From Micromonospora avicenniae (lineage in GTDB: Bacteria > Actinomycetota > Actinomycetes > Mycobacteriales > Micromonosporaceae), in the NCBI RefSeq assembly GCF_900156065.1, contig NZ_FTNF01000003.1, forward strand, positions 62,001-126,000: a stretch of 64,000 bases of DNA, written 5' to 3'. Position numbers and translations under genes: made by a program. The notes under the pieces were generated by a model. The model was given only the letters and a program-made list of their open reading frames with translations, searched no databases and was not told the DNA's origin. Positions 3,321-16,666 of the stretch are shown here, piece by piece (positions within the stretch are counted from its first letter, which is position 1; the number at the start of each line of letters is the position of its first letter).

Positions 3321-3797
3321 ATGAAAACGCGAATCCGAACCATCCTCGCCGGGCTCGCCACGCTGGCCGCCCTTGCCGTCGCCACCCCGGCGCAGGCGGC
3401 AACCGCCGCTCCCCTCGGCACCGCCGCGAACCCGTTCACCGTCTCGGCCACTTCGGGCTGCGGATCGAGCTGCGACGGCAAGGACCCATCCGTGTACGCC
3501 ATCTACTACAACGGCCGAATCACTACCTGCTCGGCCGACGCGATCACCGCGCGGGTCAACACCAACGGCATCAACCTGGAACTGCGCTACAGCGCGATCT
3601 GCCGCACGGCCTGGACCCGGGTCCCCAACGACTTCTACTACCCGTACATCCGGAGCTACTACCCCGACGGCCGGCTCCGCGTCGAGTACAACGGCTTCGA
3701 GGGCGCCTACTACTCGCAGATGGTCAACGACGCGAACCTGCTCGCCGAGGCGCGCGCCTCGGCCGGCCCGACGACCTGGTACACGGGCCGGTACTGA
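3321..3797 (+). CDS. Small secreted DUF2690-type protein (copy A)
   Basis: The 158-residue product starts with a Sec signal peptide (KTRIRT, a hydrophobic stretch, cleavage near ATPAQA-AT). The mature part carries the DUF2690 pattern: paired Cys, CDGKDP, a later Cys before an alanine-rich stretch, then LELRYSAICRTAWTRV. The function of the family is unknown. Several Cys suggest disulfides in a secreted domain. The start is set by a good ribosome site (AGGAGG, seven bases before ATG). A perfect hairpin follows the stop. It is paralogous to the minus-strand gene at 13409-13879, and the two bracket the secreted-protein block. Confidence 0.85.
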   Translation: MKTRIRTILAGLATLAALAVATPAQAATAAPLGTAANPFTVSATSGCGSSCDGKDPSVYAIYYNGRITTCSADAITARVNTNGINLELRYSAICRTAWTRVPNDFYYPYIRSYYPDGRLRVEYNGFEGAYYSQMVNDANLLAEARASAGPTTWYTGRY

Positions 3798-3814
3798 GCC
3801 GGTAGCGACCAATA

Positions 3815-3852
3815 CGGACCGGGCGGCGTAACTCTGCGCCGCCCGGTCCGTC
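3815..3852 (+). terminator. Hairpin terminator after DUF2690 copy A
   Basis: A perfect 15-bp inverted repeat (ACGGACCGGGCGGCG and its complement) has an 8-base loop and lies 18 bases after the stop codon. No U-tract follows, as is common in high-GC actinobacteria. Confidence 0.7.
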
Positions 3853-3998
3853 GTCATGCGTTCGGCGAATCGCGGCTATGGGCCGGCGATGCGATGAGCA
3901 TGATCCCGTGGTGAGCGCGCCGGTGATGCTGCCCCTCACTGGTAGCGCCGTCGCACGTCGCGTCACGGCGCAACCGATCTCGATCAGAGGGGATCAGG

Positions 3999-5579
3999 TT
4001 GAAGCAGCGGGTAGGAACAAGACAATGGCTGACGGCGGCGTGCCTCGCCGCCGCCATCCTGGCTGTCCAACCGGCGTCAGTGCACGCCGAGGAGAAAAGA
4101 GAGCCTGCGCCGGAACCGACCAAGCCGGTCGCCCAGGCACCGCGCGAGTCCGGCGACAACAGCATCACGCCCGCCCAGCGGGCACGTATGGCGAGTGAGG
4201 AGCCACTGGTCAAGGCGGCGTTGCGGATTCGCACGGCTGCGCAGAAGGCCAAGGCGGCCGGCTTCGCCGGGGTGGCGTTGCGCGACGGCACGGTGACCGT
4301 CTACTGGAAGGGTCCGGTGCCGGCGGCCAGCCAGAAGACGATCGACCAGGAGTCGGCCAAGGTGCCGGTCGTGGTACAGCCCGCCGCGCACTCCGCAGAG
4401 GAGCTGGCCAAGGCGGCCGACGAGATCGGCCGGACGTTGCGCGCCTCCGGCGACCGCTCGGTCGTCTCGATCGGCTACCCGGTGACCGGCAGCGGCATCA
4501 CCGCCACGGTGACCGGCGCGAAGACGCCGGCCGCCCTCGCGAATACCCCGGTGCCCGTGACTGTGAACCGGACTGCGCCGAAGTCCGTCAAGCCTGCTTC
4601 GCAGGGTTCGGCGCCGGGCCGCCGGACGGGCTCACCGGCTAGCGCGGGGACCGCCGGCACGACGGCTACCGGAGACTCGATGGGCACCCTGGCGTTCGGC
4701 GACTGGCCGCACCCGAGCCGGCAGGACGACACCGTCCCGGCCTGGGGCGGGGCGCACATCATCAACTCCAACGCGACCGGCGGGAACCAGGGCTGGCAGA
4801 TCCGGGACGACGAGACCTCTGAGGTAAGGCCGGCCGACGACAAGTGGCACTGCACCTCCGGCTTCCCCGTCATCGTCAACGGCAGCGGCCAGGAACTCAT
4901 GGTGCAGGCGCTCGGCTGCGGCGGCCCGCAGCGGGCATTTGTCGAACCGAACGGTGAGCCAGTCAACGTGCCAACCAGCAGCATCACGGTGGATGCCTCC
5001 TCCGGCGTCTCGTTGACCGTTCCCGTCGGCGGCGCCGAGCCGTACCTCTACGGCGGGGACGCCTGGGCGCAGACCGGCTGGCAGATCGGCGGCTGGGAGG
5101 CACCGGTGACAGGCCAGACCGTCTGCGTTTCCGCGGCCGAGACAGGGACTTTCTGCGACGTCACGATCGGCGATGAGGTCGACTCGGAAACCGCGTTCAT
5201 CCCGACCTCACAGGGCGACTCCAACGAGACCCACAACATGACCAACCTCTACACCCACCCTCATGACGGACCGGTGTGGTCCGACCGGCGGGTCTACAAG
5301 CTCGCGGACGGCAGCGTCTGCAACGCGTTCGACTTTTTCAAGGAGGAGGACGAAGAGCACTGCTGGCGCGTTCCGTTCGCACCGGGTGACATGGGCGCTG
5401 CCGTCTACACGATGCCGGCCACCGGTACCACGACCGGCGTGATCATCAAGGGCATCCTTGTTCACCACCACGACGGATACCTCCAGAACCCGCTCAACTA
5501 CCACATGGTGGGGGCCGATCGGATCTCGGCCGCCTACCCATATATCAGCCCCCTGACTTCGAGGAACGACCGGCCGTGA
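3999..5579 (+). CDS. Secreted chymotrypsin-fold pseudo-protease with prodomain-like region
   Basis: This 526-residue secreted protein starts at TTG after GAGGGG and has a signal peptide ending near VHAEE. Residues ~60-190 resemble an alpha-lytic-protease type prodomain (FAGVALRDGTVTVYW, later VVVQPAAHSAEELAKAADEIG). The rest resembles S1 serine proteases of the streptogrisin type, but the catalytic landmarks are gone. After CTSGF (Cys285) there is no TAGHC histidine block, and the GDSGGPV motif reads GDMGAAV, with Met465 in place of Ser. An intact enzyme is therefore unlikely; a binding or inhibitor-like role is possible. The next gene begins within 20 bases, indicating an operon. The fold call is moderate and the missing Ser is read directly. 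Confidence 0.65.
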   Translation: MKQRVGTRQWLTAACLAAAILAVQPASVHAEEKREPAPEPTKPVAQAPRESGDNSITPAQRARMASEEPLVKAALRIRTAAQKAKAAGFAGVALRDGTVTVYWKGPVPAASQKTIDQESAKVPVVVQPAAHSAEELAKAADEIGRTLRASGDRSVVSIGYPVTGSGITATVTGAKTPAALANTPVPVTVNRTAPKSVKPASQGSAPGRRTGSPASAGTAGTTATGDSMGTLAFGDWPHPSRQDDTVPAWGGAHIINSNATGGNQGWQIRDDETSEVRPADDKWHCTSGFPVIVNGSGQELMVQALGCGGPQRAFVEPNGEPVNVPTSSITVDASSGVSLTVPVGGAEPYLYGGDAWAQTGWQIGGWEAPVTGQTVCVSAAETGTFCDVTIGDEVDSETAFIPTSQGDSNETHNMTNLYTHPHDGPVWSDRRVYKLADGSVCNAFDFFKEEDEEHCWRVPFAPGDMGAAVYTMPATGTTTGVIIKGILVHHHDGYLQNPLNYHMVGADRISAAYPYISPLTSRNDRP

Positions 5580-5593
5580 AGAAGGGAGGAACG

Positions 5594-8566
5594 ATGAGTA
5601 TGTTCAGCACGAGCGGACTCCGTACCGGCAGACCGATGGCGTTGGCCGCAGCTGTTGCGGTCGGCCTCGCGCTGTTGTGGGTCCCACCAGCGCAGGCGAA
5701 GCCACAGCCGACCCGGGAGCCGGTCGCCGTCGGGGCGATCGGTGCGACGGAGCGGGACAAGGTGATCGGTACGGGCTGGCAGTCGTCGCCGGACCGGGCG
5801 TGGACCACCGCCGGGGATGCGGAGGGCTTCCACGTCCTGGTCGCCGACGCGGCCGACGGTTACACCTGGCGCACGGTCGCCACCCTCAGCGAGAGCGGGT
5901 TCGACACCGACCGCTGGATCGGCAACGCGTGCGTCACCGGTTCGGGACGCCGTGCCGTGGTCGTGTACGCGCCCCGGACCTTCACGAACAAGGCCGAGCT
6001 GAGCGCACGGGGCGGCTTCACCGCCGTCGTCGATCTGGAAACCGGCGCGGTGAGGAAGCTGCCGGTTACCACCAGCCTCGCCTATTTCAATCCGGGCTGC
6101 GGCACCGGGGAGGCGGTGGCGCTGACGCAGGAGGGCGATGAGGAACGGCCCGGCACCCGGCTGCTACGCCTGGACGCCGTCCAAGCGAAGCTGGGGCCGA
6201 AGGTCACGGTGAAGGGCCAGCTGACGTCGGCCGTACCCGTCGGGAACGGCTTCATCGGTGCGCGCGGCGCCTATCTCACCAAGGTCGACAGCAAGGGAAG
6301 CACGACGAACCTCGGCGAGGGGAGCAACGTGCCGTTCGCCATCCGGCCGGACGGCGCGGGTGGCGTCAACTACCTCGAACTCGACGGCACCTCGATGCGG
6401 GCACGTCGGCTGGCCGGCGGCAAACAGGTCACGCTGGCCGAGGGCGGTGTCGGCTCCTTCGGGCTCGAACCCGGCGCCGGTGGGCGGGTGTTTCTGACCG
6501 GTCGTCCGACCAGCGTCAGCTCCCTGCCCGCGGCCGTGCAACGGCTCGACGTGCCGGCCACGGCGGAGGTCTCCACCACCGGTCGGCTCGCTTTCGAGCG
6601 GACGATGACCGCCGAGGAGACGCTTCCTGGCAGTACCCCGCCGGTGGATAGCGCCCCAGTCCGGTTGAAGGCGCTGGTGCCACAGACCCGTGAGGCGGTC
6701 TCCTTCCAGGTGGCGCCGGCGCACGCCGCCACTGCGGGGGCGACCGAGGTCAGCCCGGCGCTGGGCCGCCCGCGCACGGCCGCGGCGGGTACGACCAGCC
6801 GGGCGGACGCCGCCAAGGCCGCCGCGGACGACGATCTGATGACGCGGTACGACCCGGAGGACCCGGATCCGTGGTGCGCGGTGCCGCGCAACGACATGAA
6901 GACGCTGGCATACCACCCCCGCCCCCGCCAGATCGAGTGGGCGGTCGACTACGGCATCTTCGGGGCGCTCACCCAGGTCCGGCCCGCGAACTTCAAGAAC
7001 TTCGGGCTGCCGTCGTACTCCCCGCAGGGACTGTTCCCGCCACACCCGCTGGTCGGCGGCGGCCATGTCTCGGCACAGATCATGCTCGGCATCCTGGCGC
7101 AGGAGTCCAACCTGTGGCAGGCCTCGCAGACCGAGTCTGGCGAGTACGGCAACCCGTTGATCGGCAACTACTACGGGCGCAACTACTACGACGAGGACAC
7201 CAGCGACGACTGGCGGATCCACTGGGACGAGGCGGACTGCGGCTACGGCGTCGGGCAGGTGACCGACGGCATGCGCAAGGCCGGCAAGGAGAAGCCTGGC
7301 GAGGTGGCCCGACCGGCCGTTCACCAGCGGGCCATCGCGCTGGACTACGCGGCCAACATAGCCGCCTCGCTGCAGATCCTCCAGGACAAGTGGAACCAGA
7401 CCTACTCCAACGGTCTCGTCGTCAACAACGGTGACCCGACGAAGGTCGAGAACTGGTACTTCGCAGCCTGGGCCTACAACAGCGGCTTCTACCCGTCCAA
7501 GGGAGACGGATCGCCGTGGGGTGTCGGCTGGAGCAACAACCCGATCAACCCCCGGTACGATCCGGCGCGGCACCCGTTCCTGGATGTACGGGACCCGTTC
7601 GACCTCGATGACAACGTCCCCGTTTTCAGCGATGCGGCGCACCCTCAGGACTGGCCCTACCAGGAGAAGGTCATCGGCTGGGCGGCCCAGTCGATCGATA
7701 CGGGCGACGACGGCGTCGGCTTCCGTACCGCGTTCTGGATCGGGGAGCCACTGGACGCACGGCTGCGACGAACCCAGCAGAAGCCGGAAACCAGTCTCTT
7801 CTGCGACGGCTCGAACAATTGTGACCCGCTGGCCCGTGTGCAGCCGAACGAGCCCGGTCTCGAGCAGGAGCCTCCCGGACCCTGCCTGCACAAGAACAGT
7901 GCGGGTCAGTACGACCTGAAGTGCTGGTATCACGCACCGGTCACGTGGAAGGGGGACTGCGACGAGAGTTGCGGCTTCGAGGGCATCCGGTACGACGTGC
8001 CGGACAACTACGCCGAGCCCGTTGACGGCACGCACAACCCGCCGCAGTGCACCCCGGTCGGCCTGCCGGCCAACGTGATCATCGTGGACAGCATCTCCTC
8101 CGGCACAGCCATGCCACGGTGCGGCAACGCCCCGCGCAACGACGGGTCCTTCATCATGGAGTTCGCGGAGGGCTGGCCCGGCGAGTACACGTCGAAGATC
8201 GACACTCACCAGCTGGACAACGGGTTCGGCGGCCACCACTGGTTCACCCGGGCTCGCGGGTCGTACCGGTTCCAGGTGATCGCTACCTGGCGGCCACCGA
8301 CCAGTCAGACCGGGCGCACCGGCGTGTACGTCTACGTCCCGCCGACCGGCGGGCGGGTCAACGACGCGTACTACGAGATCAATACCGGTGACGGCCGGAT
8401 CCGGATGGTGAAGGTGGATCAGGAGGCGTACCACGGTAGCTGGGCGTTCCTGGGCAACTTCCAGCTCGGGTCCGGCGCATATGTCCGGCTGGACACGATG
8501 CTTTCGGGGCCGTCAGAGAAGTCGATCAGCATCGACGCTGCGGCCTTCGTGCCGGGCGGCGTCTGA
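5594..8566 (+). CDS. Giant secreted protein A: propeller-like, lytic-transglycosylase-like and golvesin-like domains
   Basis: The product is about 990 residues. ATG 5594 is chosen, though ATG 5600 has better spacing from AGGGAGGA. A signal peptide ends near PAQA. Residues ~45-330 contain repeated beta-strand-like units resembling a propeller. Residues ~430-640 look like a GH23 lysozyme-like domain: AQESNLW (candidate catalytic Glu504), GYGVGQVTDGM and FAAWAYNSG. A Cys-rich linker follows, then a golvesin-like C-terminus (KVDQEAYHGSWAFLG, ending SIDAAAFV). It is paralogous over its length to the minus-strand protein at 9269-13222 but lacks the SGNH domain. Peptidoglycan or glycan cleavage outside the cell is plausible but unproven. 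Confidence 0.7.
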   Translation: MSMFSTSGLRTGRPMALAAAVAVGLALLWVPPAQAKPQPTREPVAVGAIGATERDKVIGTGWQSSPDRAWTTAGDAEGFHVLVADAADGYTWRTVATLSESGFDTDRWIGNACVTGSGRRAVVVYAPRTFTNKAELSARGGFTAVVDLETGAVRKLPVTTSLAYFNPGCGTGEAVALTQEGDEERPGTRLLRLDAVQAKLGPKVTVKGQLTSAVPVGNGFIGARGAYLTKVDSKGSTTNLGEGSNVPFAIRPDGAGGVNYLELDGTSMRARRLAGGKQVTLAEGGVGSFGLEPGAGGRVFLTGRPTSVSSLPAAVQRLDVPATAEVSTTGRLAFERTMTAEETLPGSTPPVDSAPVRLKALVPQTREAVSFQVAPAHAATAGATEVSPALGRPRTAAAGTTSRADAAKAAADDDLMTRYDPEDPDPWCAVPRNDMKTLAYHPRPRQIEWAVDYGIFGALTQVRPANFKNFGLPSYSPQGLFPPHPLVGGGHVSAQIMLGILAQESNLWQASQTESGEYGNPLIGNYYGRNYYDEDTSDDWRIHWDEADCGYGVGQVTDGMRKAGKEKPGEVARPAVHQRAIALDYAANIAASLQILQDKWNQTYSNGLVVNNGDPTKVENWYFAAWAYNSGFYPSKGDGSPWGVGWSNNPINPRYDPARHPFLDVRDPFDLDDNVPVFSDAAHPQDWPYQEKVIGWAAQSIDTGDDGVGFRTAFWIGEPLDARLRRTQQKPETSLFCDGSNNCDPLARVQPNEPGLEQEPPGPCLHKNSAGQYDLKCWYHAPVTWKGDCDESCGFEGIRYDVPDNYAEPVDGTHNPPQCTPVGLPANVIIVDSISSGTAMPRCGNAPRNDGSFIMEFAEGWPGEYTSKIDTHQLDNGFGGHHWFTRARGSYRFQVIATWRPPTSQTGRTGVYVYVPPTGGRVNDAYYEINTGDGRIRMVKVDQEAYHGSWAFLGNFQLGSGAYVRLDTMLSGPSEKSISIDAAAFVPGGV

Positions 8567-8574
8567 CGGATGAA

Positions 8575-8609
8575 CCGATGGGGGTACGCGAGGCGTGTAC
8601 CCCCATCGG
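8575..8609. terminator. Hairpin between convergent genes
   Basis: A 13-bp perfect stem (CCGATGGGGGTAC and its complement) with a 9-base loop starts 9 bases after the stop of giant protein A. It sits between two convergent transcription units and could act in both directions. The remaining bases to 8780 show no recognisable feature. Confidence 0.7.
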
Positions 8610-8780
8610 CGTCGGGCTTTCGCTGCCACCCAGGGAAGCAGGGCGTCCTGCGGTGGACTTCGTTATGAAGACCGTCCGATCGGTTGGCGGGGTGGGGCGG
8701 CCAGACCCGCTCTTGAATCATCCCCAACCGCCGGCAGATGTCTCGAGCATTGGCTGGGTCTCGGCTCAGGTGCAGAGGCT

Positions 8781-9272
8781 TTACCGGTGCAGTGTGACGA
8801 CCCGGTCAGGCCGATCAGGTCGCTGGTCGAGGGCCGAACCACAAGAAATGTCGGCCATGTCGACGTGTGGATCCTTGGCTGCCATCCCCGACAGCCGGAC
8901 GCAGAGCCGGACGTGAACCTCGGCGGCGACGAAGCCACCACCATGACCGGCCCCGTCGTAGGCAACATCCACTTCGAGGCGGCCGTCACGGCCTGCGCGC
9001 TGGCCGAAGACGACACCGTGACGGTCTGCCGCACTCGCGGCTGTCGCCAGGGCAGTCAGCCGCTGTTCAACAGTCTGCGTGGTCAAGGCCGGATCGGCGA
9101 GCACGACGGTAGCCGTGTTCCGGGCGAGAGCGGCGCGAGATCGCACCGCCTCGGTCGCTTCCGCCGTCGCCTGCCCCTCCGAATCCAGACCACAGCCGGC
9201 CAGGCAAAGTAGCGTGACGCCCGCGAGAAGAAGGCATCTTCTCGCGGACCTCACCGTGACTGCCCGGGTCAC
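8781..9272 (-). CDS. Putative lipoprotein translationally coupled to giant protein B
   Basis: This 163-residue product has an N-terminal Arg-rich and hydrophobic stretch ending in a lipobox (LCLAGC), so lipid anchoring at Cys is expected. The rest is Ala/Val-rich with a helix-like segment and later paired strands; I recognise no family. GTG at 9272 is chosen because it overlaps the stop of the upstream 1317-residue gene (GTGA), implying coupled translation. A second GTG at 9254 also precedes the lipobox. Its fixed position suggests a surface partner or chaperone of giant protein B. Confidence 0.65.
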   Translation of the reverse strand: MTRAVTVRSARRCLLLAGVTLLCLAGCGLDSEGQATAEATEAVRSRAALARNTATVVLADPALTTQTVEQRLTALATAASAADRHGVVFGQRAGRDGRLEVDVAYDGAGHGGGFVAAEVHVRLCVRLSGMAAKDPHVDMADISCGSALDQRPDRPDRVVTLHR

Positions 9273-12200
9273 ATGCCCATCATATCGACGGCCACATGGT
9301 TCATGACCGATGCGTAGCGGGATGTGCCGTCCTTGTTCGGATGAAAGGATTGCTGCGACAAGCCCCAGCGATTCCAACTCTCCGGCAGATAGTCCGGCAG
9401 TGGGCCATTCTCACCCGGCGTGAGGGTAAGGACTATCTTGTTGAGCGCCTCCGGGTCGCCGCATACTCCGTGGCCGGCGAACGCGACCGTGGGGTCACCG
9501 AAGTAGGTGGGGATGCCCTCGGCGCTGGCCTCCGTGCTGGCCTGCCCCATCACCGTGGCCAGCAGCAGAGCGGTGCTGTTCAGCCACGTCCGTTCCCCAT
9601 CGTTGATCTCGCTGAAGCAGAAGAGACCTGTCTGCTCGAACAGCTTCGGGTAACCCATCAGCAGAATCTGTGCGTGGGGCGCCTTCTTGTGGATTTCCCG
9701 CAGCACCGTTTTGATGGACTGCTTGACCGGCCCTTCGATGTTCTGCTTGACGGTCGCCGCAAGGGGCTCCGTGTCACCAGGATAGGTGTCGGTGTCGCAC
9801 TGAAAGCTGTTCAGGATGCAGAACTGGAGCACATCGGCGAAGCGCGCGTCGTTGCCGCCGATCGACAGGGTCACCAGAGTGGTGTTCTCATCAAGGAATC
9901 CGCGGTCGAGTTGCGGCAGTTCACCCCAGTGGTAAGCCGCCGACTGTCCCCAGGCGTTCGTCGGGAGCGGCTGCCCGTCTGGCGCGGTGTAGCCGGGCAG
10001 CAGGTTCTCCGTCTCGGCGCCGGAGCAGGCGAGAAACTGGTAGTCCATGCTCGGGTCCCAGGCGTCCGAGCGGCTGCCGATGTTCGACGTGCTGTCGGAG
10101 AGCACGGCCAATCGAGACCAGGCGTACCGCGACCGATGGCACACATCCTGGTAGCGCACCTGGTCGTTGACGACTTCCTTGTAGTCCGTCTCCGGGTAGT
10201 AGTCGGCTCCGTCCAGGCTGGAGGCACCCTCACCGGAGGAGAATGAGTCACCCAGCGCGACGATTTGATGCCGAGGCTTGGCAGCCAGCTTCTGCACGGC
10301 GATGGCGTCCCACGCCACGTCTTCGTCACCGGTTCCGTCGTACGCCTCGTTGGTCAACCGCACCCGCGGTGTACCGGCGAACTTGAAGACCCCGAGGGAT
10401 ACCCACTGACTGCGCTGTACGCGTTGCAGGATCACACGCTTCTTGCCGCTGGCAAACCCGGTGCCGAGATCGACCTCGTACGCGGCCTGGCGGGTATGCG
10501 CGCCCTGCTCCGGCAGGTGCACCATCACCCGGGCCCAGCCGTTGACTGCCTGATTCAGGGCCCAGGTACCCGTTACCTTCATTTTTCCACCAAGGTCGCC
10601 CGGCGCCCAGGTATGGGCGAACCAGAAGTGGCCCCCGAATCCGCCACCGATCTGATGAAAGTCGACCTTGGACGCAAACCGGCCTGCCGAGTCGTTGGCA
10701 AAGGTCAGCCCAAAGGTCCCTGAGTTGGTCCAGTTATTCGTGCATCCCGCACGGATTGGGGGAGTCCCGCCAGGGACGTCATCGACTATCAGGCTGCCGG
10801 AGGGCAGGCCGGACAAATCGCATTTCGGCGGGTAGGTGTTTGCGTCTTCCTGGTACGCATACCCAGGATCGAACCGCAGGACCTCGTTGCCGAGTTGGCT
10901 GGGGCCCTTCCACGTTGCCGACTGGTGGTACCAGCACACCAGGTCGTACTTGCCCGCAGCGTTCTTGTGCGCGCAAGGCCCTGCGGGCTCGCCCACCACG
11001 TCGGGATCGTCCGGCGTGTGCAGCTCGCCGGGGTGGCAGTCGTTCGAGTCGTCGCAGAACAGGTACGTCGGCGGTTTCACGTTGACCCGGTCCTCGACCG
11101 AAACCCACCAGGCTGCTCGAAAGCCCGCCACGGAGATGTCCGGGCCCTCCGGCAGGCTCGGCGGGTGCCCAGCAAAGCCCAACACCTTCTCCTGGTAGGG
11201 CCAATCCTGTGGGTGAGCGGCATCGGCGTAGGTGTCCTCGAGGAAGGGCCTGCGGTCCGGCTTGTATCGCGGGTTGGCCGGGTTGTTCGCCCAGCCCAGG
11301 CCCCATGGCTCGCCCGTGCCCAGATCTGGATGCAGGCCCGAGTTGTAGGCCCACAAGGCGTAGAACCAATTCTCCAGACCGGCTGGGTCTCCGTTGTTGA
11401 TGATCAGATTAGCGGCTCGGGTTTGGTTCCACTTGTCCTGCAGCACCCGCAATCCGGCCGCCACGTTGGCGGCGAAGTCGAGGGCGACCGCCCGCTGCGA
11501 GTCGTACGGCAGCAGCGTCTCTCCGGGCTTCGCGTGCCCACTGCGCCGCATCCCGTCGGTGAGCTGGGTGACACCGTAGCCGCAGTCGGCCTCATCCCAG
11601 CGCACGTCCCAGTCGTCGTCCGGGTTCTCGTTGTAGATGTCGCGCCCGTAGAAGTTGCCGATCAGCGGATTGCCGGTGACTCCCGGCAGGGCGTGACGCG
11701 TTGCCTGCCACATGTTCGATTCCTGGGCAACCACGCCCAGCATCACCTGCGCCGGCACCCGGCCGCCGCCGAGCAGTTGGTGCGGCGGGAACAGATCCTG
11801 TGGTGTGTACGCCGGCATCCCGAGGTTTTTCCAGTTGGCGGGTCTCTGCACGTACAGAGAGTTAGTGATGGCCTGGTCGATTGCCCACTCCACCTGCCGC
11901 GGCTTGGGCTGCAACACCTGGTTACGGGGATCGTTGCGCGGCACCGAACACCACCGCTCGTCCTCGGCGGGTTCCGTATCGGAGCCGGTGGCGTCGAGCG
12001 AGCGCTTGCCGTCTGCGGATGATGCATCTGGCCGCAGGGCTGCGGACGGATCTGTTGTAGTTGATCGCGGTGTCACCTGGAAGCTGACGTCGCGACCCGT
12101 GCCCGTGACTCGGGCTTCGATGGCGACCCGGCCGACTTCGGTGGCCTGCGCCGTCGATTCGGCCATCGCACCTTGGTCGGTACGCTGCACCCGGGTCAGC

Positions 12201-13222
12201 GCAAGCTGCCCCTCTGAGGAAAGTTCCGCCGCCGCCGGCACGTCGAGTCGTTTGACCCCGTCCGGTAGCGCCTGCAGCTCGGTCGGCCGCCCGGTGATGA
12301 AAAGCTGACGGCTCGCCCCGGCGCCGACCGACAGATCGCCGAGTGGCCCCTTTGCTAGCGTCCGCACCGTCGCACCCGGCCGAGGCGCCACGTAACCCAC
12401 CCGCGCCCCGCCGTCGGGGCGGTCGATGAAGAGGACGTTGCCCTTCCGGTCGGTGGTCATACCAAACGGTGTGCCGGCAGTGCGGACGAGCGGGACGAGT
12501 CGGCCACCTTTTTTCACCTGCACCAGGCGGGATCCGCCCGCAGCCACGATGCCAGCTGGGGTGAGTACTGGTGCCGTGAGCTCGGCCTCCACAACCTCGG
12601 CACCGCCGAGCTTTCCGGTGGCGACGTCGAGCGTGGTCAGTCGAGTCCGCGGCTGATCGCTCAGATTCTCCTCACGCTGACCATTCAGCTGGGTGAGCAC
12701 GGCGCTCTCCCCCGCACCGCAACTGGGATTGAAGTACGCGAGCGATGTGCGGATCGGCAGTCGGGTGACCTCGCCAGTTTTCAAGTCAACCGTGGCGGTG
12801 AATCCACCCCGGTCGAACAGGTCCGACCTGTTCGTGAAGGTCCGTGGCGCGTACACAACCACGAGCCGGCGACCGGACGCGGTCAGGCACGCGTTGCCGA
12901 TCCACTGATCGGCTTCCACACCGGGGACCGTCAGGTCGGCCACTCCGTGCCAGGTGTACCCACTGCTGACGGTGGCGGCCAACACGTGGAAGCCATCGGC
13001 GTCGCCGGAGGTCGTCCAGGCAAGGTCAGACGAGTGCGTCCACCCCTGCGGGAGCAACTGGTCGCGATGTTCGGGTCGAATGGTGTTGGTTGCCTTGGCC
13101 TGCTCCGCCTTCGGCGGCGATGCGGGCTCGGGCGGGGCGGCGGCTGCGGGGAGCGCGGGTGCCGCCGAAGCGGCGACGACGACTACGGCGGCCGCCGCTA
13201 GGGTGGCCCATTTTCGGATCAT
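9269..13222 (-). CDS. Giant secreted protein B: propeller-like, lytic-transglycosylase-like, golvesin-like and SGNH hydrolase domains
   Basis: The 1317-residue product starts at ATG 13222 after GGTAGGAAGG and has a signal peptide. Its first ~960 residues parallel giant protein A: a propeller-like part, then AQESNMW (candidate Glu501), GYGVTQLTDGM and ALWAYNSG, and a golvesin-like part ending DVAWDAIAV. It then gains an SGNH/GDSL hydrolase domain: GDSFSSGEG (Ser993), a GGND block, and SFHPNKDG (His1294). The position three residues before the His is Gln, not Asp, so a Ser-His dyad is likely. De-esterification or acyl removal from envelope polymers alongside glycan cleavage is a reasonable inference. 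The substrate is unknown. Confidence 0.75.
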   Translation of the reverse strand: MIRKWATLAAAAVVVVAASAAPALPAAAAPPEPASPPKAEQAKATNTIRPEHRDQLLPQGWTHSSDLAWTTSGDADGFHVLAATVSSGYTWHGVADLTVPGVEADQWIGNACLTASGRRLVVVYAPRTFTNRSDLFDRGGFTATVDLKTGEVTRLPIRTSLAYFNPSCGAGESAVLTQLNGQREENLSDQPRTRLTTLDVATGKLGGAEVVEAELTAPVLTPAGIVAAGGSRLVQVKKGGRLVPLVRTAGTPFGMTTDRKGNVLFIDRPDGGARVGYVAPRPGATVRTLAKGPLGDLSVGAGASRQLFITGRPTELQALPDGVKRLDVPAAAELSSEGQLALTRVQRTDQGAMAESTAQATEVGRVAIEARVTGTGRDVSFQVTPRSTTTDPSAALRPDASSADGKRSLDATGSDTEPAEDERWCSVPRNDPRNQVLQPKPRQVEWAIDQAITNSLYVQRPANWKNLGMPAYTPQDLFPPHQLLGGGRVPAQVMLGVVAQESNMWQATRHALPGVTGNPLIGNFYGRDIYNENPDDDWDVRWDEADCGYGVTQLTDGMRRSGHAKPGETLLPYDSQRAVALDFAANVAAGLRVLQDKWNQTRAANLIINNGDPAGLENWFYALWAYNSGLHPDLGTGEPWGLGWANNPANPRYKPDRRPFLEDTYADAAHPQDWPYQEKVLGFAGHPPSLPEGPDISVAGFRAAWWVSVEDRVNVKPPTYLFCDDSNDCHPGELHTPDDPDVVGEPAGPCAHKNAAGKYDLVCWYHQSATWKGPSQLGNEVLRFDPGYAYQEDANTYPPKCDLSGLPSGSLIVDDVPGGTPPIRAGCTNNWTNSGTFGLTFANDSAGRFASKVDFHQIGGGFGGHFWFAHTWAPGDLGGKMKVTGTWALNQAVNGWARVMVHLPEQGAHTRQAAYEVDLGTGFASGKKRVILQRVQRSQWVSLGVFKFAGTPRVRLTNEAYDGTGDEDVAWDAIAVQKLAAKPRHQIVALGDSFSSGEGASSLDGADYYPETDYKEVVNDQVRYQDVCHRSRYAWSRLAVLSDSTSNIGSRSDAWDPSMDYQFLACSGAETENLLPGYTAPDGQPLPTNAWGQSAAYHWGELPQLDRGFLDENTTLVTLSIGGNDARFADVLQFCILNSFQCDTDTYPGDTEPLAATVKQNIEGPVKQSIKTVLREIHKKAPHAQILLMGYPKLFEQTGLFCFSEINDGERTWLNSTALLLATVMGQASTEASAEGIPTYFGDPTVAFAGHGVCGDPEALNKIVLTLTPGENGPLPDYLPESWNRWGLSQQSFHPNKDGTSRYASVMNHVAVDMMGM

Positions 13223-13350
13223 GGCCTTCCTACCTCGAGAGGGGATGGGACCAAAACACACTCATCGAGGCCGCCATCGTTCGGCCATCAGCGCCTCATC
13301 AGTTCTCAAGGGAGGGCGCAACAGTCCATCCACTAACACACACGCGACGG

Positions 13351-13388
13351 CGACGGCATGCCGCTACGAATGGAGCGGCATGCCGTCG
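13351..13388 (-). terminator. Hairpin terminator after DUF2690 copy B
   Basis: A perfect 15-bp inverted repeat (CGACGGCATGCCGCT and its complement) with an 8-base loop lies about 20 bases beyond the stop of the minus-strand DUF2690 gene. It separates that gene from the start of giant protein B. Confidence 0.7.
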
Positions 13389-13408
13389 ACGGAGCGAGGT
13401 TGCAACTG

Positions 13409-13879
13409 TCAGTTAACGCAATACTCCATCCACTGGGCCAGTGCCGAGTAGTAAAAGTAGAGGCAGCCACGCGGGTTCTGGTTGGCGGCCGCCATTGGCG
13501 TCCAACCCGTCTCGCCGGCGTACGCGGCCAGGGTCTTTTTGTACGTCACCGAGTTGCCCTTGATGCGTGCCTCGCCCGTCGATCCGTACTGATTGGTGTA
13601 CCTGGTCCAGTAGGCCTGGCAGCCGGAGGAATACCTCAGCTCGATGTAGACACCGTTCTTCGCCACCCCGTCCGCCACCGTCGTTCCGGTGCAGCCCAGC
13701 GAATTGGGATCCTTTCCATTGCAGGAAAGGTAACCGGACCCGCCACCGTTGCGGCAGAGGTCGGGATCGGCCGCAGTGCCCGCCCACGCCGCATTGGGCG
13801 AAGCCACGAGGGCACTGGCGGCCAGCACCGTCGCCGCCAGGAAGTTCCGTGTCCGCCTGAAATTGAAAACCCGAGCCAC
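13409..13879 (-). CDS. Small secreted DUF2690-type protein (copy B)
   Basis: GTG 13879 is preferred because AGAGGA lies six bases upstream; an upstream GTG at 13894 would add five residues. The 156-residue product has an Arg-rich n-region, a hydrophobic core and a cleavage site near AAWAG. The mature part shows the DUF2690 pattern: LSCNGKDP, a following Cys, then VYIELRYSSGCQAYWTRY. It is a diverged paralogue of copy A at the other end of the block, and its C-terminus gains two extra Cys. No catalytic motif is seen and function is unknown. Confidence 0.85.
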   Translation of the reverse strand: MARVFNFRRTRNFLAATVLAASALVASPNAAWAGTAADPDLCRNGGGSGYLSCNGKDPNSLGCTGTTVADGVAKNGVYIELRYSSGCQAYWTRYTNQYGSTGEARIKGNSVTYKKTLAAYAGETGWTPMAAANQNPRGCLYFYYSALAQWMEYCVN

Positions 13880-14113
13880 AGCAGTTCCTCTCACTCACAG
13901 TGATCGGGCCGACTGTAATCATGGGGCTCATCATTTCCCCATCGCCCGGCCACCACGATCCCGCGCCGCTCACACGGCAAGACGTCAAACCACCACGTAG
14001 GCAGGACCGATGACCCGCCGATGGGAAGACAACGGCATCGTCTGGCCTGCGACCGTGCAGCGTCGCGGCTCCTGCCCGGCACCTTGGCCCGGCCCAAGCC
14101 GGCAACTCCCCGG

Positions 14114-15814: not shown

Positions 15815-16666
15815 GTGGAATTTCAATTTCTCGGTCCACTGACCATGCGATCAGGCAATTCCTCTTTCCATATTTCGGGGGAGCGCGGTCGCAAACTGCT
15901 TGCCCGCCTCGTAATCGACGTCAACCACGACGTCACCATCGATCGTCTAATAGACACCGTATGGGACGCCGATCCGCCGGCCACTGCGCGTCAGCAAATC
16001 CAAAACCGCTTGGGCCGACTCCGCGCCCTGCTGTCGCAAAATGCCTCGGGCCAACAGATCGTCCGACATGGCAACTGCTACCAGTTGCAATCGGCCGAAG
16101 AACACGTCGACGGATTGAGGTTTCGCCGGCTCTGCGCCGAGGCGGATATCGCCCACCGGTCTGGTGATGCGGCGCACGCGACCGCTCTACTCCGCCAAGG
16201 GCTCACATTGTGGCGCGGGAATGCGCTCCAGGACATCCACTCGGACGCCTTACAAGGGGATGCCACCCATTGGGAGGAGTTCCGCCTCCGCGCCATCGAG
16301 AGCCTGGTGGCTCTCGAATTCGCTAGGGGAGCCGGAGTTTCCATCATTTCCGATTTGCAGTCCTGGGTCGCTAGATATCCCTATCACGAGGGTCTGCACT
16401 GCCGCCTGTCTGAGGCCCTGCACGAGGCGGGGCGAACGGTCGAATCGCTGGCCGCCATCCGGGATCTACGGCACCGGCTAGATTTGGAACTGGGAATCGC
16501 ACCGGGCGCCGCAGTCAATGAGCTGGAGCGAAGCATTCTCGTAAGCCAGGAGGCACTGCCACCAGCCAGCATCCACCTTGACCGGGAGGCAGCCGAGGCG
16601 CTGCGCCGGGCACTGAGCGAAACCACGCGTGCACTGGCGATCCTGGCCACTGTCTTGGCCTGCTGA
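15815..16666 (+). CDS. Orphan SARP/AfsR-type transcriptional regulator
   Basis: The 283-residue protein has an OmpR-like winged-helix DNA-binding domain (about 1-95; RGRKLLARLVIDVNHDVTIDRLIDTVW) and a bacterial transcriptional activation domain (about 97-245; RDLRHRLDLELGIAPG). This is the standard SARP layout without NB-ARC or TPR parts. Such activators normally sit in secondary-metabolite clusters and bind heptameric direct repeats. Here no biosynthetic genes adjoin it. Many codons end in A or T, unlike the neighbours, which suggests transfer. The start is GTG 15815. Its targets are unknown; the secreted-protein block next door is one possibility. Confidence 0.85.
   Translation: MEFQFLGPLTMRSGNSSFHISGERGRKLLARLVIDVNHDVTIDRLIDTVWDADPPATARQQIQNRLGRLRALLSQNASGQQIVRHGNCYQLQSAEEHVDGLRFRRLCAEADIAHRSGDAAHATALLRQGLTLWRGNALQDIHSDALQGDATHWEEFRLRAIESLVALEFARGAGVSIISDLQSWVARYPYHEGLHCRLSEALHEAGRTVESLAAIRDLRHRLDLELGIAPGAAVNELERSILVSQEALPPASIHLDREAAEALRRALSETTRALAILATVLAC

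What the first reader, a model, noticed from the sequence alone, without database searches (positions are those of the whole stretch)
3321..13879. Ten-kilobase secreted-protein cassette with paired paralogues
Two DUF2690-type small secreted proteins lie at the outer ends, transcribed toward the centre. Inside are a pseudo-protease, two giant paralogues that converge, and a lipoprotein. The paralogues keep both the candidate transglycosylase Glu and the propeller and golvesin-like parts. Nearly every product is exported, in an otherwise housekeeping region. The near mirror-image layout suggests duplication with later division of labour, possibly an envelope-remodelling or interbacterial system.
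Basis: partly seen in the sequence, partly recalled or inferred. Interest (0 to 1): 0.75.

Follow-up and report, generated by a model that had tools for sequence, protein, structure and literature searches.

The report
Secreted polymorphic toxins, swappable enzyme tips
This stretch of a soil actinobacterium's chromosome most likely encodes a secreted protein weapon: a large, probably wall-cutting carrier that in related bacteria bears interchangeable enzyme tips (here a lipid-cutting one), next to a small protein that probably protects the producer.

Summary
Across 79 loci the same ~960-aa scaffold (propeller, SLT-like and golvesin-like domains) bears exchangeable C-terminal tips: SGNH, NucA/NucB DNase, both, EEP nuclease, an unknown ~430-aa domain, ricin lectin, or none. 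On a scaffold-only tree the tips need at least 19 changes. The gene at the 3' end goes with the tip: DNase tips face SUKH-1 or DUF6461 genes (13 of 19 against 0 of 76), SGNH tips are followed by small membrane-anchored proteins (19 of 38 against 0 of 57), the unknown tip by polytopic membrane proteins (8 of 14 against 0 of 81) (families seeded from these neighbours). This is the signature of polymorphic toxin-immunity systems. Best reading: giantB is a secreted toxin, the lipoprotein its surface immunity protein, giantA a tipless partner encoded with a pseudo-trypsin. Toxicity and protection are inferred; half the SGNH giants lack a partner of the named families. Our searches found no published description. 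New variant of a known kind.

The parts
3321..3797 (+). DUF2690 secreted protein A (158 aa, signal-peptide-like start)
   Evidence: PF10901 41.6 bits, cut-off 23; sequence
3999..5579 (+). secreted trypsin-fold pseudo-protease (526 aa from TTG; the start is uncertain), partner of tipless giantA
   Evidence: profile matches S1 proteases, best 2sfa E 2e-4; catalytic Ser and His positions replaced; precedes the tipless giant in the 4 loci that hold it
5594..8566 (+). giantA, tipless scaffold protein (990 aa): signal-peptide-like start, beta-propeller, SLT-like domain, golvesin-like domain
   Evidence: model pLDDT 83.3, pTM 0.82
5726..6718 (+). giantA beta-propeller (about residues 45-375)
6911..7693 (+). 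giantA SLT-like lytic transglycosylase domain; Glu504, Gln555, Tyr628-Asn629 invariant in 95 of 95 giants
8141..8554 (+). giantA golvesin C-terminal-like domain
   Evidence: PF25275 41.3 bits, cut-off 31.6
8781..9272 (-). lipoprotein (163 aa), candidate surface immunity protein for the SGNH tip; lipobox Cys27, Cys124 and Cys144 invariant in 12 of 12 aligned
9269..13222 (-). giantB, SGNH-tipped scaffold protein (1317 aa), candidate toxin
9272..10279 (-). giantB C-terminal SGNH/GDSL tip (336 aa), phospholipase A1-like
   Evidence: PF13472 37.7 bits, cut-off 32.9; PDB 4hyq phospholipase A1 E 9e-22; S, G, N, H invariant in 45 of 45 tips
11129..11911 (-). giantB SLT-like domain (Glu motif AQESNMWQA at 11702-11728)
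13409..13879 (-). DUF2690 secreted protein B (156 aa; a GTG start at 13894 is possible)
   Evidence: PF10901 33.1 bits, cut-off 23

Best explanation
The cassette is a locus of an apparently undescribed family of secreted polymorphic toxins of Actinobacteria. Shown from sequence: a constant scaffold with a signal-peptide-like start (beta-propeller, SLT-like muramidase domain, golvesin-like domain) carries an exchangeable C-terminal tip, and in many loci a tip-specific gene sits at its 3' end. In this window giantB bears a phospholipase-like SGNH tip and overlaps a lipoprotein gene. GiantA is a tipless version encoded after a pseudo-trypsin and a DUF2690 protein. Inferred mechanism: giantB is exported by Sec; the propeller and golvesin-like domains (perhaps with lectin-like or DUF2690 accessory proteins and giantA) bind a related neighbour's envelope; the SLT domain opens peptidoglycan; the SGNH tip hydrolyses membrane lipids. 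The lipoprotein on the producer's outer membrane face binds and blocks the tip, which is where an immunity protein against an extracellular lipase would have to sit. Relatives with DNase tips instead have SUKH-1 or DUF6461 partners without a membrane segment, as expected for a toxin that acts inside cells.
For: (1) Swappable tips: of the best 120 relatives plus the two giants (122), 19 end at the scaffold and 103 fall into 59 SGNH (some with NucA/NucB added), 30 unknown, 13 EEP, 1 other; the 96 giants of 79 loci add ricin-tipped and NucA/NucB classes.
(2) Tip exchange: on a scaffold-only tree of 95 giants the tip needs at least 19 changes (6 is the least possible); sister rows with different tips at 100 support include L038/L040 and L069/L073_8.
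(3) Partner goes with tip: of 17 SUKH/DUF6461 hits among 11,015 ORFs, 16 lie in loci of DNase-tipped giants and one (L033) beside a truncated giant whose nearest tree relative is DNase-tipped; all 19 hits of the anchored and multi-TM families lie in loci with an SGNH-tipped giant; all 8 polytopic hits with the unknown tip. Counts near the 3' end: 13 of 19 against 0 of 76, 19 of 38 against 0 of 57, 8 of 14 against 0 of 81. Pfam independently names the DNase partners SMI1_KNR4 (4, one below cut-off) or DUF6461 (6) in 10 of 10 scanned, chosen from the convergent neighbours.
(4) Family-blind check: a small anchored or polytopic downstream ORF in 27 of 38 SGNH and 9 of 14 unknown-tip giants, against 1 of 43 others.
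(5) SUKH proteins are recorded as immunity to nuclease toxins including one named Tox-NucA (PMC3482391, passages); a phospholipase with a lipoprotein immunity is known from T6SS Tle3/Tli3 (PMC9860674, abstract start in a listing).
(6) SGNH catalytic residues in 45 of 45 tips, SLT Glu in 95 of 95.
(7) Patchy distribution: 5 of 41 relatives, 17 of 120 genomes of another family, 7 of 148 genomes across the class at E below 1e-100.
Against: No toxicity, secretion or neutralisation has been measured. Partner families were seeded from these neighbours, so the p-values are descriptive, and one ORF (L023) was admitted by an exception for its long frame. In phylogenetically independent pairs the partner never goes the wrong way, but the numbers are too small (median p 0.125 in each of three tests). 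Nineteen of 38 SGNH giants, 6 of 14 unknown-tip and 6 of 19 DNase-tipped ones have no partner of the named families, and EEP tips have none (0 of 5). In the family-blind test about six of the 27 SGNH positives look by eye like plain secreted proteins or a doubtful ORF (L028, L031, L051, L068, L074, L082), and the one exception among the 43 others is a real-looking 240-aa lipoprotein after the tipless giant L063_16. In held-out loci only 8 of 21 SGNH giants have such a neighbour, some of them plain secreted proteins, and one DUF6461 hit lies 3.9 kb beyond an SGNH-tipped giant, L120. Whether Tox-NucA of PMC3482391 is the same family as Pfam DNase_NucA_NucB was not checked. The SLT domain is below Pfam's cut-off in the window's giants, has no meaningful PDB match by profile, and its fold was not tested because the propeller filled the fold searches. 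GDSL domains are also listed among the accessory domains of umbrella UmbA proteins (PMC13274773, passage), so SGNH need not be the killing part. How DNase tips would cross the membrane is unknown.
Confidence: 0.72

Rival explanations
1. Envelope-remodelling or developmental hydrolases: the giants are the producer's own cell-wall and lipid enzymes, and the small anchored neighbours are chaperones, foldases or docking proteins.
For: SLT muramidase and lipase activities are typical of growth and lysis enzymes; the locus lies near penicillin-binding-protein and glycosyltransferase-like genes (names by eye); many SGNH and all 5 EEP giants lack a partner of the named families.
Against: Patchy distribution; tips swapped between scaffolds; DNase tips with SUKH-1 or DUF6461 genes make little sense for wall growth; a foldase would not be expected to change compartment with the tip's substrate.
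Confidence: 0.13
2. Secreted scavenging enzymes: surface carriers that degrade external DNA and lipids for food.
For: Nuclease, lipase and lectin tips on an apparently exported carrier; SGNH tips resemble phospholipase A1 4hyq (extracellular Streptomyces origin recalled).
Against: Scavenging enzymes need no tip-specific cytoplasmic or surface partner, yet in the 79 loci these partner families were found only with their tip class.
Confidence: 0.08
3. The SGNH domain is a targeting or wall-polymer-processing part and the lethal activity here lies in the SLT domain; the lipoprotein protects against something else.
For: Seven giants carry SGNH followed by NucA/NucB, so SGNH can be internal; GDSL and ricin domains are listed as accessory domains of umbrella UmbA proteins; a tipless giant, L063_16, is also followed by a lipoprotein.
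Against: The anchored partner families were found with SGNH-only giants (19 of 38) and with none of the 7 SGNH+NucA/B, 8 tipless or 11 ricin-tipped giants.
Confidence: 0.16

Closest known systems
[quoted passage not shown] 2012, PMC3482391; passages seen)
   Same: constant exported N-terminal part, variable C-terminal tip, linked tip-specific immunity gene; SUKH immunity for nuclease toxins; beta-propeller listed for Sec-exported toxins and RicinB as an adhesion part
   Different: the words SGNH, GDSL and transglycosylase have 0 occurrences in the held main text (a search listing of the same paper counts transglycosylase once); the SUKH/DUF6461 genes here are mostly convergent
Streptomyces umbrella toxin particles UmbA/B/C (PMC11062931; abstract, passages and sections 4 and 10 seen)
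   Same: secreted polymorphic toxins of Actinobacteria; inactive trypsin-fold partner; small secreted partner; lectin and propeller parts; immunity gene downstream of the toxin gene
   Different: no ALF-repeat family found in the giants by Pfam; the scaffold has an SLT-like domain; DUF2690 is not shown to be UmbB-like; the pseudo-trypsin here has no recognised lectin
T6SS Tle phospholipase / Tli lipoprotein immunity pairs (PMC9860674; abstract start in a search listing)
   Same: antibacterial phospholipase countered by a lipid-anchored protein outside the cytoplasm
   Different: other bacteria and another delivery; whether the lipase folds differ was not tested
Phospholipase A1 4hyq and lipase 5mal (Streptomyces origin recalled)
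   Same: tip domain homologous, E 9e-22 and 1e-14
   Different: chains of 236 and 234 residues, not fused to a scaffold

Membership tests
polymorphic toxin system | constant N-terminal part with exchangeable C-terminal domains | tested here: met
   seven tip states in 95 scaffolds, at least 19 changes on the scaffold tree
polymorphic toxin system | tips include recognised toxin or effector enzyme families | tested here: met
   NucA/NucB, GDSL, Exo_endo_phos by Pfam on representatives
polymorphic toxin system | adjacent tip-specific immunity-type gene | tested here: met
   met for 13 of 19 DNase-tipped, 19 of 38 SGNH and 8 of 14 unknown-tip giants; not met for EEP tips (0 of 5) nor for the rest
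polymorphic toxin system | export signal | tested here: inconclusive
   signal-peptide-like N-termini seen by eye; no predictor available
polymorphic toxin system | toxicity of the tip and neutralisation by the partner | not testable with these tools
   needs bench work
umbrella toxin (Umb) | ALF-repeat, coiled-coil UmbC | tested here: not met
   Pfam scan of both giants at E up to 1 lists no ALF family; the giantA model has a propeller and no long coiled coil
umbrella toxin (Umb) | UmbA inactive trypsin-like domain with lectin | tested here: inconclusive
   pseudo-trypsin present, no recognised lectin; homology to UmbA not established
umbrella toxin (Umb) | UmbB adaptor | tested here: inconclusive
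   DUF2690 model is a small all-beta domain with only weak matches
SLT lytic transglycosylase | three motifs with catalytic Glu | tested here: met
   E504, Q555, Y628-N629 invariant in 95 of 95; the assignment of the motifs is recalled
SLT lytic transglycosylase | Pfam cut-off reached in the window's own giants | tested here: not met
   giantA slice 13.4 bits against 21.3; giantB shows no SLT match at E up to 1; 46 of 48 slices match at E up to 0.5, best 9e-6
SGNH/GDSL hydrolase | S, G, N, H catalytic residues | tested here: met
   45 of 45 tips; window tip over Pfam cut-off
active S1 serine protease | intact catalytic Ser and His | tested here: not met
   both positions replaced in the window gene
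bacterial lipoprotein | signal peptide with lipobox Cys | tested here: met
   LAGC, Cys27 invariant in 12 of 12 aligned, by motif only

The most novel reading that the evidence does not exclude
A second, umbrella-like class of secreted antibacterial particle. A tipless or lectin-tipped giant and a toxin-tipped giant, both built on a wall-cutting propeller-SLT-golvesin scaffold, assemble with an inactive trypsin and DUF2690 (sometimes lectin-fused) accessory proteins, and the muramidase clears a path for an exchangeable warhead. In 11 of the 16 loci with more than one giant, a toxin-tipped giant sits beside a tipless or ricin-tipped one.
Probability: 0.2. Interest if true: 0.88.

Novelty: new variant of a known kind. 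Interest (0 to 1): 0.7.

Why it matters
The carriers are widespread but patchy in Actinobacteria (517 encoding stretches confirmed in one scan) and in the 120 listed relatives carry names such as golvesin-domain, GDSL, endonuclease/exonuclease/phosphatase or hypothetical protein. If the reading is right, they are a further family of exported protein weapons of antibiotic-producing soil bacteria. They would give functions to orphan families (DUF6461, the anchored lipoproteins, perhaps DUF2690) and offer a clean logic for testing immunity: the partner sits in the compartment where its tip acts. They also suggest how a toxin could breach a Gram-positive neighbour's wall with a built-in muramidase.

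Tried and rejected

Sampling limits: the 78 loci are the best of 517 by similarity to giantA, not a random sample; one fragment (L024_13) was dropped before the 95-giant counts; two extra loci (L090, L091) slipped into the ORF set and gave no hits; of 31 giants in the loci fetched, five were left out: L114_6 and L142_7 (identical to L075 and L012 giants), L128_6 (no tip match), L129_8 (weak SGNH match on a long tip) and L136_9 (tip split over two frames).
Full report
WHAT IS THERE. The window lies at G000:C62:62001-126000 of a 6.82-Mb genome, probably a Micromonospora: the closest giantA relative listed is 89% identical, from M. musae. From left to right: DUF2690 protein A (+, 3321-3797), pseudo-protease (+, 3999-5579), giantA (+, 5594-8566), lipoprotein (-, 9272-8781), giantB (-, 13222-9269), DUF2690 protein B (-, 13879-13409). 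The giantB stop and the lipoprotein start overlap as GTGA, which suggests translational coupling. GC is 0.65-0.66 over 8001-14000, while most of the window lies near 0.70.

A FAMILY WITH SWAPPABLE TIPS. A protein search gave 1301 relatives of giantA among the 7980 candidates scored, best 120 listed. With the two giants (122), the C-termini are SGNH (59, giantB among them), unknown ~430 aa (30), EEP nuclease (13), one other, and no tip (19, giantA among them). A genome scan confirmed 517 encoding stretches; the best 80 gave 78 loci. With the window, these 79 loci hold 96 giants, 95 kept: SGNH 38, unknown 14, NucA/NucB 12, ricin lectin 11, none 8, SGNH+NucA/B 7, EEP 5. Pfam confirmed the tip types on ten representatives, the unknown class having no match over cut-off. 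On a scaffold-only tree the tip states need at least 19 changes, with well-supported sisters bearing different tips, so tips have been exchanged repeatedly. Different tips also occupy similar chromosomal neighbourhoods: neighbour clusters recur in many loci (penicillin-binding protein 26, PadR-like 16, a ~140-aa protein 14, GT87-like 12; the last two lists include the window), with SGNH, unknown, ricin, SGNH+NucA/B or no tip (gene names by eye).

THE PARTNER FOLLOWS THE TIP. Genes at the giants' 3' ends differ by tip. Ten chosen convergent neighbours of DNase-tipped giants are SMI1_KNR4 (SUKH-1; 4, one just below cut-off) or DUF6461 (6). Many SGNH-tipped giants are followed by ~120-165-aa proteins with a lipobox or one membrane helix; those of the window lipoprotein's family share two further cysteines. 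Many giants with the unknown tip are followed by 56-139-aa polytopic membrane proteins. Iterated profiles over 11,015 ORFs gave 17 SUKH/DUF6461 hits, 16 in loci of DNase-tipped giants and one beside the truncated giant of L033 (hits of L033, L064 and one of L042 lie 1.4-3.1 kb off); 19 anchored or multi-TM hits, all in loci with an SGNH-tipped giant (in L009 the gene lies between the two giants, directly after the SGNH one); and 8 polytopic hits, all with the unknown tip. Near the giant's end (about -130 to +320 bases, one L023 ORF admitted by exception): 13 of 19 against 0 of 76, 19 of 38 against 0 of 57, 8 of 14 against 0 of 81. Because the profiles were seeded from these neighbours, a family-blind test was added: a small anchored or polytopic ORF follows 27 of 38 SGNH and 9 of 14 unknown-tip giants, against 1 of 43 others; in held-out loci 8 of 21 SGNH, 2 of 2 unknown-tip and 0 of 3 others (loci). 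The detailed list shows that about six of the 27 look like plain secreted proteins or a doubtful ORF, and that the exception is a real-looking lipoprotein after the tipless giant L063_16. Among held-out loci the seeded profiles hit one lipoprotein after an SGNH giant (L115), one polytopic protein after an unknown-tip giant (L126), and, against the pattern, one DUF6461 gene 3.9 kb beyond an SGNH giant (L120). Independent-pair tests never contradict the pattern but lack power.

READING. This is the logic of polymorphic toxins and immunity. DNase tips pair with proteins of a superfamily recorded as immunity to nuclease toxins, among them one named Tox-NucA (PMC3482391, passages; not checked to be the same NucA family). 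Lipid-attacking tips pair with proteins tethered outside the membrane, as for the T6SS phospholipase Tle3 and lipoprotein Tli3 (PMC9860674, abstract start in a listing). I therefore read giantB as a secreted toxin with a membrane-lipid-cutting tip and the lipoprotein as its immunity protein. Export, wall cutting, lipid cutting and protection are inferred.

GIANTA, PSEUDO-TRYPSIN AND DUF2690. Tipless giants of giantA's clade form one Micromonospora group (4 rows, support 100), each with the pseudo-protease gene upstream (4 of 4 loci). In the protein searches the two families also show contigs of identical length at least four times (175357, 198388, 42475, 101832). Of 16 loci with more than one giant, 11 pair a toxin-tipped giant with a tipless or ricin-tipped one; three of these tipless giants (L018_9, L039_13, L063_16; 32-34% identical to giantA) were found only as neighbours of another hit, so the count is biased. 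The inactive trypsin and small secreted partner recall umbrella particles (PMC11062931), but no ALF repeats were found and no homology was shown. DUF2690 occurs in 19 of 79 loci by profile (a looser clustering gave 22). A search of 19 giant-bearing genomes found it in 19, but 14 of the 20 loci named for that search already held one, so this is no fair sample; it also occurs in genomes without giants.

NOVELTY. Searches for golvesin, DUF2690, DUF6461 and combinations of polymorphic toxin with Actinobacteria/lysozyme/Streptomyces, transglycosylase, GDSL or Micromonospora showed no paper on this family (open-access library only; titles and abstract starts of the listed papers seen, 20 of 863 listed). 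The mechanism class is known; the scaffold, its tip set and its partner genes appear new.

Noticed in passing
window 15845-16666 (+): A short SARP/BTAD-type regulator gene (type by eye); 15 BLAST relatives, this one included, occur in 13 of 79 giant loci, some directly adjacent (L025, L036, L052, L070), so it may regulate the cassette.
   Followed up: partly
L024, L032, L034, L035, L046, L058, L072, L082: Subtilase genes resembling T7SS mycosins (by eye) lie near mostly ricin-tipped giants (8 loci).
   Followed up: no
L037:13644-14558, L048:13431-14498, L049:13591-14499, L130: DUF2690 matches in ~300-aa proteins downstream of SGNH+NucA/B giants; L037's reads by eye as a ricin-lectin-like part followed by DUF2690.
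   Followed up: no
L033 and L064: Giants that look truncated, with SUKH or DUF6461 genes 1.8-3.1 kb beyond the apparent end; L064 has both, resembling a poly-immunity locus.
   Followed up: no
L063, tipless giant L063_16: A 240-aa lipoprotein-like gene overlaps the end of a tipless giant, unlike the other tipless ones; unexplained.
   Followed up: no
G006, G008, G012, G013 (same genus): Divergently placed pairs of DUF2690 matches about 1 kb apart in genomes without a giant, hinting at another partner system.
   Followed up: no
L006:15275-16567 and 13 other loci (alignment A8): A ~430-aa tip with many invariant residues and no Pfam match over cut-off or PDB relative, often paired with small polytopic membrane proteins: possibly an unrecognised toxin family.
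   Followed up: partly
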